From positions 1-64,000 of the forward strand of contig JAIXSQ010000017.1 in NCBI GenBank assembly GCA_027484575.1: a stretch of 64,000 nucleotides of DNA, in the 5' to 3' direction. The stretch's first letter is position 1; the number at the start of each line of letters is the position of its first letter. The notes beneath the pieces are model-generated. The model was not told the origin of the DNA and made no database searches. It saw only the letters and a list, made by a program, of their open reading frames with translations. The position numbers and the translations under genes are program-made. This document shows positions 52,848 through 56,302 of the stretch, in pieces. Origin of the DNA: Comamonadaceae bacterium. Its GTDB lineage: Bacteria > Pseudomonadota > Gammaproteobacteria > Burkholderiales > Burkholderiaceae_C.

Positions 52848-54047
52848 TTGGATCAAGCAGGACAGGACTTCCAGAGCGCGGTCAGCGCATCCGTGCCCGG
52901 GCAACGGGGTTTCGACACGCTGGTCGTGGGCGCCGGCTTCGCCGGCAGCGTGCTGGCCGAGCGGCTGGCGCGGGTGCTGGGCCAGCGCGTGCTGGTGGTG
53001 GACAAGCGGCCGCACATCGGCGGCAACGCGTACGACCGCCACGACGACCACGGGGTGCTGGTGCACCCCTACGGCCCACACATCTTCCACACCAACTCGG
53101 CCGAGATCTTCGACTACCTGTCGCAGTTCACGCAGTGGCGCCCCTACCAGCACCGCGTGCTGGCCAGCGTCGACGGGCAGCTGGTGCCCATGCCGATCAA
53201 CCTGGACACGGTCAACCGGCTGTACGGGCTGAACCTCACCTCGTTCCAGCTCGAGGAGTTCTTCGCCTCGGTGGCCGAGAAGAAGGACGAGGTCAAGACC
53301 TCGGAGGACGTGGTGGTCGGCAAGGTGGGCCGCGAGCTGTACAACAAGTTCTTCCGCGGCTACACGCGCAAGCAGTGGGGCATGGACCCCAGCGAGCTCG
53401 ACGCCAGCGTGACCGCGCGCGTGCCCACCCGCACCAACCGCGACGACCGCTACTTCACCGACACCTACCAGGCCATGCCGCTGCACGGCTACACCCGGAT
53501 GTTCGAGAAGATGCTCGACCACCCGAACATCAAGGTGATGCTCAACACCGATTACCGCGACGTGGTGGACCTGCTGCCGTGGAAGCACATGGTCTACACC
53601 GGCCCGATCGACGCCTTCTTCAACCACAAGCACGGCAAGCTGCCCTACCGCAGCCTGGAGTTCCGTCACGAGAACGTGGCGCAGGAGCAGTTCCAGCCGG
53701 TGGGCACGGTCAACTACCCCAACGACTACGCCTACACCCGCATCAGCGAGTTCAAGCACATCACGGGGCAGCAGCACCCGACCACCTCGGTGGTCTACGA
53801 GATCCCGCGCGCCGAGGGCGACCCGTACTACCCGGTGCCGCAGCCGCAGAACGCCGAGCTGTACCGCAAGTACGAGGCCGAGGCCGAGCAGCTGCGCAAC
53901 GTGACCTTCGTGGGCCGGCTGGCGACCTACAAGTACTACAACATGGACCAGGTGGTGGGCCAGGCGCTGGCCACCTTCCGCCGGCTGCAGCAGCGGCTGG
54001 GCGAGGAGACCGACCCGGCCCTGGCGGCGCAGCAGACCACCGCATGA
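52848..54047 (+). CDS. glf: UDP-galactopyranose mutase
   Basis: Flavoenzyme (399 aa) that interconverts UDP-galactopyranose and UDP-galactofuranose, the donor for galactofuranose-containing glycans. It has the FAD motif TLVVGAGFAGSVLAERLA, IGGNAYD, HPYGPHIFHTN, and active-site segments KFFRGYTRKQWG, MPLHGYTRMFEKML and GRLATYKYYNMDQVVGQAL. TTG at 52848 is taken as start because AGGGAG lies eight bases before it and no ATG is suitable; the first ~20 residues are a non-conserved tail. It overlaps the following fusion gene by 4 bp. The 188-bp region before it contains no gene. Confidence 0.95.
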   Translation: MDQAGQDFQSAVSASVPGQRGFDTLVVGAGFAGSVLAERLARVLGQRVLVVDKRPHIGGNAYDRHDDHGVLVHPYGPHIFHTNSAEIFDYLSQFTQWRPYQHRVLASVDGQLVPMPINLDTVNRLYGLNLTSFQLEEFFASVAEKKDEVKTSEDVVVGKVGRELYNKFFRGYTRKQWGMDPSELDASVTARVPTRTNRDDRYFTDTYQAMPLHGYTRMFEKMLDHPNIKVMLNTDYRDVVDLLPWKHMVYTGPIDAFFNHKHGKLPYRSLEFRHENVAQEQFQPVGTVNYPNDYAYTRISEFKHITGQQHPTTSVVYEIPRAEGDPYYPVPQPQNAELYRKYEAEAEQLRNVTFVGRLATYKYYNMDQVVGQALATFRRLQQRLGEETDPALAAQQTTA

Positions 54048-56302
54048 GCGGCCCGGCCGACGCGGGCCTGCAGCTGTGGGCAGGCCCCGAGTGCACCGTC
54101 AACCGGGTGGGCGGGCGCTGGTTCGACCAGCTCGCCGCCAGCGGCTTCGACCGCAGGCTCGACGACCTGGACCGGCTGGCCTCGCTGGGCATCGCGCAGC
54201 TGCGCATGCCGCTGCTGTGGGAGCGCTGCGCGCCCGACGGCCCGCAGCAAGCCGACTGGGCCTGGGTCGACAGCCGGCTGCAGCGCCTGCGTGCCCTGGG
54301 CGTGCGGCCCATCGCGGGCCTGGTGCACCACGGCAGCGGGCCGGCGGGCACCGACCTGCTCGACCCCGGCTTCGCCGATGGCCTGGCGGCCTGGGCCGGT
54401 GCGCTCGCGCGCCGCCACCCGGACATCGAGGCCTGGACGCCGGTCAACGAGCCGCTGACCACCGCACGCTTCTCGGGCCTGTACGGCCTGTGGTGGCCGC
54501 ATGGCCGCGACGACGCCAGCTTCGTGCGCTGCCTGCTCACGCAGGTGCGGGCCACGGTGGCGGCGATGCGCGCGGTGCGCGCCGTGAACCCGCGCGCGCA
54601 ACTGGTGCAGACCGACGACCTGGGCTGGACCACGGCCGGATCGCCGGCCCTGCAGGCCCAGGCCGACTTCGAGAACGAGCGCCGCTGGCTGGGCTGGGAC
54701 CTGCTGTGCGGCCGCGTGCGGCCCGGCCACGCGCTGTGGGACTGGCTGCTGCGCTCGGGCGCCGGCGCCGACGAACTGCTGGCCCTGGCCGATGCGCCCT
54801 GCCCGCCCGACGTGGTGGGCATCAACAGCTACGTGACCAGCGAGCGCTTCCTCGACGACCGGCTGGGGCTCTATCCCGAGGCGATGCACGGCGGCAACCA
54901 CCGCCAGCGCTATGTCGACGTCGAGACCGTGCGGGTGCAGGGCGCGCCGCTGGGCGGCTTCGGTGCGCGGCTGCGCGAGGCCTGGGAGCGCCTGCGGCTG
55001 CCGCTGGCCGTCACCGAGGTGCACCTGGGCTGCACCCGCGACGAGCAGCTGCGCTGGCTGCGCCAGGGCTGGGATGCCGCGGTGCAGGCGCGGGCGGCCG
55101 GCGTGGACGTGCGCGCGGTCACGCTGTGGGCGGCCTTCGGCACCTTCGACTGGGACAGCCTGCTGACCCGGCAGCGCGGCCACTACGAACCCGGCGCCTG
55201 GGACGTGCGCACGCCGGGCGCCCCGCGCGAGACCGCACTGGCCGGCCTCGCCCGGCAGTTCGCGCGCGAGGCCCGCGCCGCGGGCGCCCCGGCGCCCGCC
55301 GACGAGCCTGCCGACCAGCCCGCCGCCGGGGCCGCACCCGTGCTGCACGGCCCCGGCTGGTGGCAGCGCGACATCCGCATCGAATGGCCGGTGCACGGTG
55401 CGCTGCAGGCCGCGACGGTGGCCGGCCCGCCGCTGCTCATCACCGGCGCGACCGGCACCCTGGGGCGCGCCTTCGCCCGCCTGTGCACGCTGCGCGGCCT
55501 GCCGCACCGGCTGCTCACGCGGCAGGACATGGACATCGCCGATGCGGCCTCGGTCGAGGCCGCGCTGGAGCGATGGCAGCCCTGGGGCGTGGTCAACACC
55601 GCCGGTTACGTGAAAGTGGACGAGGCCGAGGGCGACGCGCGCTGCTGGCGCGAGAACGTCGAAGGCCCGGTGGTGCTGGCCGACGCCTGCGCACGCCGCG
55701 GCATCCGCACGGTGCACTTCTCCAGCGACCTGGTGTTCGACGGCCGCAAGGGCAGCGCCTACGTGGAGCGCGATGCCACCGCGCCGCTCAACGCCTACGG
55801 CCGCAGCAAGGCGGCCAGCGAGGCGTTGCTGCTGGAGCGCGCACCCGGCCATGCGCTGGTGGTGCGCACCGCGGCCTTCTTCGGGCCCTGGGACGCCTGG
55901 AACTTCGTCACCCAGGCACTGGCCGCGCTGCGGCGTGGCGAGCCCTGGCGCGCCGCCGACGACCAGTGGGTCTCGCCCACCTACGTGCCCGACCTCGTGC
56001 ACGGCTGCCTGGACCTGCTGCTCGACGGCGAGGCCGGCCTGGTGCACCTGGCCAACCGCGGCGCAGTGCGCTGGGTCGACCTGGCCCACCTGGCGGCCGA
56101 GGCCGCGGGGCTGGACCGGCGGCTGGTGCAGGGCGCCAGCGGCCCGGACCTGGGGCAGCTGGCGCCACGGCCCCGGCATGCGGCGCTGGCCAGCGAGCGC
56201 GTGGGCACGCTGATGCCCACGCTGGACGACGCGGTCGCGCGCTACCTGCGCGCGGTGGCGCAGGCCGAGGCGGCGGCGGGCGGCGACCGGCTGGCGGCCT
56301 GA
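54044..56302 (+). CDS. Fusion protein: GH1-like glycosidase domain plus RmlD-like sugar-nucleotide reductase domain
   Basis: 752-aa two-domain cytoplasmic protein with no signal peptide. Residues ~1-415 resemble family 1 glycosidases: acid/base Glu in WTPVNEPLTT (about 135), YGLWWPHG, INSYVTSERF and a second Glu in LAVTEVHLG (about 324). After an Ala/Pro linker, residues ~460-740 are a dTDP-4-dehydrorhamnose-reductase-like SDR. That domain has LLITGATGTLGRAF, NTAGYVKVDEAE, FSSDLVFDG, catalytic Tyr/Lys in NAYGRSKAASE and VRTAAFFGPWD. ATG 54044 overlaps the glf stop (ATGA), so it is translationally coupled to the mutase. Joint function unknown; probably nucleotide-sugar or glycan metabolism. 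Confidence 0.9.
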   Translation: MSGPADAGLQLWAGPECTVNRVGGRWFDQLAASGFDRRLDDLDRLASLGIAQLRMPLLWERCAPDGPQQADWAWVDSRLQRLRALGVRPIAGLVHHGSGPAGTDLLDPGFADGLAAWAGALARRHPDIEAWTPVNEPLTTARFSGLYGLWWPHGRDDASFVRCLLTQVRATVAAMRAVRAVNPRAQLVQTDDLGWTTAGSPALQAQADFENERRWLGWDLLCGRVRPGHALWDWLLRSGAGADELLALADAPCPPDVVGINSYVTSERFLDDRLGLYPEAMHGGNHRQRYVDVETVRVQGAPLGGFGARLREAWERLRLPLAVTEVHLGCTRDEQLRWLRQGWDAAVQARAAGVDVRAVTLWAAFGTFDWDSLLTRQRGHYEPGAWDVRTPGAPRETALAGLARQFAREARAAGAPAPADEPADQPAAGAAPVLHGPGWWQRDIRIEWPVHGALQAATVAGPPLLITGATGTLGRAFARLCTLRGLPHRLLTRQDMDIADAASVEAALERWQPWGVVNTAGYVKVDEAEGDARCWRENVEGPVVLADACARRGIRTVHFSSDLVFDGRKGSAYVERDATAPLNAYGRSKAASEALLLERAPGHALVVRTAAFFGPWDAWNFVTQALAALRRGEPWRAADDQWVSPTYVPDLVHGCLDLLLDGEAGLVHLANRGAVRWVDLAHLAAEAAGLDRRLVQGASGPDLGQLAPRPRHAALASERVGTLMPTLDDAVARYLRAVAQAEAAAGGDRLAA

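What the first reader, a model, noticed from the sequence alone, without database searches (positions are those of the whole stretch)
52848..56302. UDP-galactopyranose mutase translationally coupled to a GH1-RmlD fusion enzyme
The second gene joins a glycosidase-like domain and an NAD(P)-dependent sugar-nucleotide reductase domain in one 752-aa cytoplasmic protein. Both domains keep their catalytic residues (NEP and TEV glutamates; GATGTLG and YxxxK). Coupling to glf by ATGA implies matched production. A cytoplasmic glycosidase next to a mutase and fused to a reductase is not explained by the textbook galactofuranose or rhamnose pathways. One inference is that the glycosidase part trims or transfers sugar on a nucleotide- or lipid-linked intermediate that the reductase domain then modifies.
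Basis: partly seen in the sequence, partly recalled or inferred. Interest (0 to 1): 0.7.

Follow-up and report, generated by a model that had tools for sequence, protein, structure and literature searches.

The report
Glycosidase-reductase fusion in galactofuranose gene cluster
A two-part enzyme, half sugar-cutting enzyme and half sugar-reducing enzyme, is made next to the enzyme that shapes the rare sugar galactofuranose; it belongs to a widespread but apparently unstudied set of genes found in soil bacteria, cyanobacteria and Deinococcus, in which the cutting half looks like the essential part.

Summary

The fusion is not a local oddity: 584 genome stretches (capped scan) encode relatives; the best 80 span six phyla, and plasmids of Deinococcus and others carry it. 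It recurs with a GT4-type glycosyltransferase (GT), Glf (the two often one protein), Leloir genes and cytoplasmic-looking GH2, GH43 and GH51. The window carries glf, fusion, galK, galT and GH2; its GT lies on another contig. In the window's genus, fusion, GT, glf and GH2 co-occur almost perfectly. The GH2's nearest solved relatives include a beta-D-galactofuranosidase.

The reductase half is eroded or lost in three branches and has lost its catalytic Tyr/Lys in a fourth, while the GH1 glutamates persist in 95 of 95 rows.

Best reading: an intracellular galactofuranoside is made from UDP-Galf, remodelled by the GH1 half, and salvaged by furanosidases and Leloir enzymes. Product and substrates are unknown; no activity was tested; my literature listings showed no description.

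The parts
52848..54047 (+). glf, UDP-galactopyranose mutase, 399 aa, TTG start
   Evidence: PF03275 270 bits; TIGR00031 393.3 bits over cut-off 303.75
54044..56302 (+). GH1-RmlD fusion protein, 752 aa; ATGA overlap with glf
   Evidence: AF2 model pLDDT 91.7, pTM 0.91
54056..55282 (+). GH1-like domain, residues about 5-413; acid/base E136 (NEP), nucleophile E325 (TEV)
   Evidence: VIA Z 33.7 to 1np2 over model 5-411; glutamates aligned with GH1 NEP and TE motifs of 9uct/8ztw; E136 and E325 in 95 of 95 rows
55421..56263 (+). RmlD-like SDR reductase domain, residues about 460-740; GATGTLG 468-474, S561, Y585, K589
   Evidence: VIA Z 36.8 to 1vl0 over model 461-740; 185 bits PF04321
57035..58216 (-). 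galK, galactokinase, convergent with the fusion
   Evidence: GalKase_gal_bdg and GHMP kinase domains; 59% to a cyanobacterial cluster galK
58229..59323 (-). galT, galactose-1-phosphate uridylyltransferase (start approximate)
   Evidence: 60% to a cyanobacterial cluster galT over 58232-59323, whose Pfam is GalP_UDP_transf; the window's own galT was not scanned by itself
59323..61119 (-). GH2 glycosidase, about 598 aa, nearest to GH2 group III (galactofuranosidase/arabinofuranosidase group); start approximate
   Evidence: Pfam GH2; best solved relatives 7xyr, 7sf2, 9j6n/9j6m beta-D-galactofuranosidase; 62% to a cyanobacterial cluster GH2

Best explanation
The pair is the local part of a conserved, laterally spread galactofuranose (Galf) module. 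Glf turns UDP-galactopyranose into UDP-Galf (known chemistry of the family). The linked GT4-type glycosyltransferase, often fused to Glf, puts Galf on an acceptor inside the cell (inferred). The GH1 half of the fusion is a retaining beta-glycosidase or transglycosidase of a new GH1 branch that trims or rearranges this product (inferred from intact catalytic glutamates and an altered sugar-binding site). The RmlD-like half reduces a keto-sugar or keto-sugar nucleotide on a side branch of the same pathway and is dispensable (inferred). Cytoplasmic furanosidases (GH2 group III; elsewhere GH43 and GH51) with GalM/GalK/GalT/GalE take the galactoside apart and return galactose to UDP-Gal (inferred): an intracellular galactofuranoside cycle rather than export of a Galf polymer.
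For: Recurrent order GT-glf-fusion: of 59 loci with at least 4 kb on both sides (out of the 80 best matches), glf directly upstream in 39, GT upstream in 41. GT and Glf are one reading frame in 19 of 57 loci with glf upstream (Pfam). Of 13 plasmid stretches with annotation, 9 have glf beside the gene. Same-genus co-occurrence in 25 genomes: fusion in 10; GT in the same 10 plus 1; glf in the same 10 plus 2; GH2 in 9 of the 10 and 0 of the other 15; in 5 of the 10 the GT is far from the fusion or on another contig. 17 of 17 genomes searched, among them those of 10 of the 13 loci without GT or glf upstream, encode the GT. galE, galK, galT, GH2, GH43, GH51 and galM lie nearby in a part of the loci. 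The GH2's nearest solved relatives are 7xyr (320.9 bits), 7sf2 (246.5) and Streptomyces beta-D-galactofuranosidase 9j6n/9j6m (228.7/226.7), next 90.1; PMC12243196 (passages seen) says furanosidase activity is specific to the GH2 group that holds 9J6M and 7XYR and that about 10% of GH2_19 have secretion signals. GH1 catalytic residues persist where the reductase decays.
Against: No substrate, product or activity was tested. The window's own GT is on another contig (C19:53472-54563), beside ABC-transporter-like genes. Only 16 of 59 loci show the GH2 within the flanks, galK 13, galT 15. Massilia loci, form B, the Deinococcus deserti plasmid and a Novosphingobium plasmid carry the protein without glf or GT nearby. 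G007 has GT and glf but no fusion. Known GH1 enzymes act on beta-pyranosides (recalled), so the link of this half to Galf is indirect. 88 of 95 rows keep a full-length reductase, 87 of them with Tyr and Lys, so it is useful in most hosts. Cytoplasmic location of the GHs is by eye only.
Confidence: 0.45

Rival explanations
1. Serial bifunctional enzyme: the GH1 half releases or transfers a sugar on a nucleotide- or lipid-linked intermediate and the reductase half then reduces it; both steps are needed.
For: Both halves full-length in 88 of 95 rows, with catalytic Tyr and Lys in 87 of the 88; AF2 packs both halves with pTM 0.91.
Against: Reductase half eroded or lost in three branches and catalytically substituted in a fourth, while GH1 residues persist and GT and glf stay adjacent in three of the four.
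Confidence: 0.2
2. Part of surface polysaccharide or glycolipid biosynthesis (Galf in LPS, capsule or membrane lipid), with the GH1 half as a chain-editing glycosidase.
For: Most known bacterial Glf genes serve surface glycans (recalled); GT4 beside Glf.
Against: The recurrent neighbours that I annotated are galactose-salvage genes and furanosidases; export genes were not searched for, so this is weak.
Confidence: 0.25
3. Catabolic cluster: breakdown of Galf- or arabinofuranose-containing oligosaccharides taken up from outside, with GH1 as one more glycosidase.
For: GH2 group III, GH43, GH51, GalM, GalK, GalT nearby.
Against: A GT fused to Glf points to synthesis, and salvage of free galactose would not need Glf (general knowledge); transporters were not searched for.
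Confidence: 0.15

Closest known systems
GH1 beta-glycosidases (Thermus 1np2/1ug6; beta-glucosidases 9uct, 8ztw)
   Same: Fold (Z 33.7 and 33.5 to 1np2 and 1ug6); acid/base and nucleophile glutamates
   Different: 14-21% identity in the GH1 rows; the HW motif reads HHGSGP and DNxEW reads mostly GxxDW, so the sugar pocket differs; fused to a reductase
dTDP-4-dehydrorhamnose reductase RmlD (1vl0, 3sc6, 4wpg)
   Same: Fold (Z 36.8 to 1vl0), GxxGxxG, S/T-Y-K
   Different: Fails TIGR01214; STDY of these three structures reads mostly SSDL and RT[S/A]W reads mostly RT[S/A]A; rmlB is on another contig
UDP-galactopyranose mutase (Glf/UGM)
   Same: Full-length match over the equivalog cut-off
   Different: In 19 of 57 loci fused to a GT4-type glycosyltransferase
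GH2 group III furanosidases (GH2_18 9J6M/9J6N, GH2_19 7XYR)
   Same: The window's GH2 is nearest to them by far and keeps the NE motif that 7XYR lacks
   Different: Encoded with galT and galK beside glf and the GH1-RmlD fusion

Membership tests
Glycoside hydrolase family 1 | Pfam GH1 match over gathering score | tested here: met
   31.9 bits vs 22.6
Glycoside hydrolase family 1 | (beta/alpha)8 fold of GH1 | tested here: met
   AF2 model; VIA Z 33.7, 374 residues, rmsd 2.9 to 1np2
Glycoside hydrolase family 1 | Two catalytic glutamates in NEP and TE motifs | tested here: met
   Aligned; 95 of 95 rows
Glycoside hydrolase family 1 | Retaining beta-glycosidase activity | not testable with these tools
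   -
RmlD (dTDP-4-dehydrorhamnose reductase) | SDR fold with GxxGxxG and S/T-Y-K | tested here: met
   (Y585 and K589 in 87 of 88 rows with a full-length half; the exception is Caballeronia L144)
RmlD (dTDP-4-dehydrorhamnose reductase) | NCBIfam equivalog TIGR01214 cut-off | tested here: not met
   191.6 vs 224.05 bits
RmlD (dTDP-4-dehydrorhamnose reductase) | Encoded beside rmlB | tested here: not met
   Own-genome search for rmlB gives no match on the window's contig C13 at E 1e-20; the over-cut-off rmlB is at C10:288897. rmlA and rmlC were not searched
RmlD (dTDP-4-dehydrorhamnose reductase) | Reduction of dTDP-4-keto-rhamnose | not testable with these tools
   -
UDP-galactopyranose mutase | Equivalog TIGR00031 cut-off | tested here: met
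   393.3 vs 303.75 bits
GH2 group III (GH2_18/GH2_19) furanosidase, for the GH2 at 59323-61119 | Belongs to GH2_18/19 by subfamily profile | tested here: inconclusive
   Best PDB matches 7xyr, 7sf2, 9j6n, 9j6m, then a drop from 226.7 to 90.1 bits; CAZy subfamily profiles not available, 7sf2's subfamily not checked

The most novel reading that the evidence does not exclude
Bacteria of dry, exposed habitats (Ramlibacter, Nostoc, Microcoleus, Massilia, Deinococcus and others) share a laterally spread intracellular galactofuranoside cycle: GT-Glf makes a Galf glycoside, a new GH1 branch rearranges it by transglycosylation, and cytoplasmic furanosidases with Leloir enzymes recycle it, the product being a stress metabolite or lipid not yet described.
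Probability: 0.25. Interest if true: 0.8.

Novelty: new variant of a known kind. Interest (0 to 1): 0.55.

Why it matters
Hundreds of genome stretches encode this protein, and where annotated it bears only domain labels ('family 1 glycosylhydrolase', 'SDR family oxidoreductase', 'sugar nucleotide-binding protein', 'hypothetical protein'). Tying it to Glf, a glycosyltransferase and a galactofuranosidase-like GH2 gives a first testable pathway and predicts Galf chemistry in hosts such as Nostoc and plasmid-bearing Deinococcus. The repeated decay of the reductase with the glycosidase kept is a natural experiment on which half matters.

Tried and rejected
Considered and rejected: (1) that the fusion is the genome's rhamnose reductase: a separate rmlB with an rmlD-like match beside it exists. 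(2) That the fusion is an annotation or assembly artefact: the same order recurs in many independent genomes. (3) That tight coupling to glf is a general feature: 22 of 57 loci have the fusion's residue-9 codon within 27 nt of the glf stop (this includes L041, whose negative value comes with broken reading frames). (4) That form B is a working copy of the same enzyme: its reductase half lacks the motifs and its neighbours are an ATP-grasp and a haem-oxygenase-like protein.

Led nowhere: ten literature searches showed no paper on the fusion or the GT-glf-GH1 set in their listings; five of them matched more papers than were listed, so this is not proof of absence. led to the GH2 subfamily paper (passages seen); to a Ramlibacter genome paper (PMC3164672; 12 of 17 passages seen; 0 occurrences of words beginning 'galact'). 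The GT found no solved relative at E 0.001. The GH43 match does not separate Galf from arabinofuranose activity. The distance between the two active sites was not measured: I found no model coordinates in the files for scripts.

Rows dropped: 6 candidate ORFs without the N-terminal motif used for trimming (L033, L054, L058, L085, L088, L098) are missing from the 95-row tree and residue counts. The 80 loci are the best of 584 in a capped scan and not a random sample. One search was given 19 of the 80 loci (17 genomes). A2 holds 44 of the sequences in hand. I opened 14 of 25 plasmid hits; one (Microvirga) has no annotation there; of the other 13, 9 have glf beside the gene, 2 a glycosyltransferase only (Azospirillum, Runella), 2 neither (D. 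deserti, Novosphingobium), and the plasmid gene tables are incomplete. Recalled, from no call: the role of the GH1 NFEW Glu and of the RmlD Trp in substrate binding, that known GH1 act on pyranosides, and that most bacterial Glf serve surface glycans.
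Full report
1. The observation. Pfam finds Glyco_hydro_1 (31.9 bits, cut-off 22.6) and RmlD_sub_bind (185 bits, cut-off 27) in the 752-aa protein, and GLF in the 399-aa one. Glf passes its NCBIfam equivalog; the reductase half does not pass the dTDP-4-dehydrorhamnose reductase equivalog (191.6 vs 224.05 bits).

2. Structure and residues. AlphaFold2 on a 44-sequence alignment gives mean pLDDT 91.7 and pTM 0.91. VIA-align puts residues 461-740 on RmlD (1vl0, Z 36.8) and 5-411 on GH1 (1np2, Z 33.7). 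Profile alignment places E136 and E325 on the NEP and TE glutamates of GH1 enzymes. The GH1 motifs HW and DNxEW read HHGSGP and mostly GxxDW in this family, so the sugar pocket differs. In the reductase, the STDY and RT[S/A]W of the three RmlD structures whose alignments I saw read SSDL (L563 in 85 of 88 rows) and RT[S/A]A (A611 in 81 of 88), again pointing to a different substrate (inference).

3. Distribution. A capped genome scan found 592 stretches matching two GH1-half motifs, 584 of them confirmed as relatives; the 80 best include Ramlibacter, Massilia, Noviherbaspirillum, Azohydromonas, Lysobacter, Nitrosospira, many cyanobacteria, Chloroflexota, Pyrinomonadaceae, Abditibacterium and Adhaeribacter. 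Draws from whole phyla show it is scattered: 5 of 398 genomes of the window's phylum, the window's own included, and 6 of 146 in the phylum of Nostoc carneum, that genome included. Plasmids of Deinococcus, Caballeronia, Sphingobium, Ensifer, Mesorhizobium and others carry it (25 records at E 1e-60, 19 of them matched over at least 80% of the query). The window's own genus appears to be Ramlibacter: contigs of G018 and G021, given as 'same genus', have the lengths of named Ramlibacter contigs.

4. The gene set. In 59 loci with at least 4 kb of sequence on both sides, a glf lies directly upstream in 39 and a GT4-type glycosyltransferase upstream in 41; 13 have neither. In 19 of 57 loci with glf upstream the GT and Glf are one open frame (domains). 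Other neighbours anywhere in the 59 loci: galE 21 (two of them distant), GH2 16, galT 15, galK 13, GH43 12, two PhyH-dioxygenase queries 10 and 5 loci, galM 6, GH51 3 (Pfam). Of 13 annotated plasmid stretches 9 have glf beside the gene, 2 a glycosyltransferase only, 2 neither. The window has glf, fusion, galK, galT and GH2, and its single GT homologue lies at C19:53472-54563.

5. Co-occurrence. In 25 genomes of the genus (the window's included) the fusion is in 10, the GT in those 10 and G007, glf in those 10 and G007 and G012, and the GH2 in 9 of the 10 and none of the other 15. The tenth, G022, has the fusion on a 14.3-kb contig of a draft. In five of the ten the GT is far from the fusion or on another contig. 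The chance of the fusion-GT overlap, ignoring relatedness, is 3.4e-6. The other 16 genomes, of the same order, have none of the four at the thresholds used. Of the 13 loci without GT or glf upstream I searched the genomes of 10 (within a set of 17 genomes): all 17 encode the GT.

6. Which half matters. The window's genome has a second homologue (C18, form B, 44% identity) whose reductase half lacks GxxGxxG and YxxxK. Ensifer (456 aa), two Mesorhizobium (529 and 567 aa) and Deinococcus KNUC1210 (555 aa) have GT-glf-GH1 with the reductase missing or reduced to remnants. In a GH1-half tree of 95 rows, form B groups with full-length Sphingobium/Novosphingobium fusions (100/96), KNUC1210 with the full-length D. 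aetherius fusion (98/92), and Ensifer with Mesorhizobium (100/99), so the reductase decayed at least three times (Ensifer is a long branch and the root is a midpoint). A fourth case is Caballeronia (L144), full-length, with glf and GT next door, but with Phe and Met in place of the catalytic Tyr and Lys and changes at G474 and N518. Across all 95 rows Q29, H96, N135, E136, Y263, E325, H327, W362 and W370 are invariant; in the 88 rows with a full-length reductase Y585 and K589 are kept in 87. I infer that the GH1 half is the working core and the reductase an accessory, though one that most hosts keep.

7. The GH2 and the direction of the pathway. The window's GH2 is closest to 7xyr (320.9 bits), 7sf2 (246.5) and Streptomyces beta-D-galactofuranosidase 9j6n/9j6m (228.7/226.7); the next is 90.1 bits. 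[quoted passage not shown] A galactofuranosidase-like enzyme beside Glf, with galK and galT, fits an intracellular galactofuranoside that is made and salvaged. That is inference; the GT-Glf fusion argues for synthesis, the furanosidases and Leloir genes for recycling. Export and uptake genes were not searched for.

8. Known or new. The parts are known families; the combination and its gene set did not show in the listings of ten searches of an open-access full-text library, which lacks most subscription journals and of which five lists were cut. I call it a new variant of a known kind (a galactofuranose gene cluster), with an unassigned enzyme at its centre. The stress link (desert, crust and Deinococcus hosts) is read off organism names only and is not tested.

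Noticed in passing
L019 (own genome C18:629000-648000), L023: Form B paralogue with a degenerate reductase half sits beside a PurD-like ATP-grasp protein and a Haem_oxygenas_2 protein (with a methyltransferase in L023), a possible separate natural-product locus.
   Followed up: partly
L062:5454-7889, and 18 further loci: Fusion of a GT4-type glycosyltransferase with Glf in one frame in cyanobacteria; 748-aa proteins annotated as UDP-galactopyranose mutase on two Sphingobium plasmids (L146, L152) have a fitting length.
   Followed up: partly
window 44443-44685: Two 102-nt units 92% alike at 105-nt spacing, with three 31-nt repeats and matching inverted arms; looks like a short interspersed repeat array.
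   Followed up: no
L081:4115-5233, L082:1042-2184, L096:13433-14767: Stand-alone GH1-like proteins distantly related to the GH1 half (24-25% in L081 and L096; L082 falls in the same cluster) near the fusion.
   Followed up: no
L148 (Azospirillum thermophilum plasmid): Two proteins annotated family 1 glycosylhydrolase within 8 kb, on opposite strands; the search reports two places in this record, one beside a glycosyltransferase.
   Followed up: no
L041 (Ramlibacter terrae CP053418.1): Matches to GT, galK, galT and GH51 are split into pieces in this complete genome; sequencing error or decay.
   Followed up: no
L054, L075: A different, more distant glf-like match (40-41%) lies downstream of the fusion instead of upstream.
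   Followed up: no
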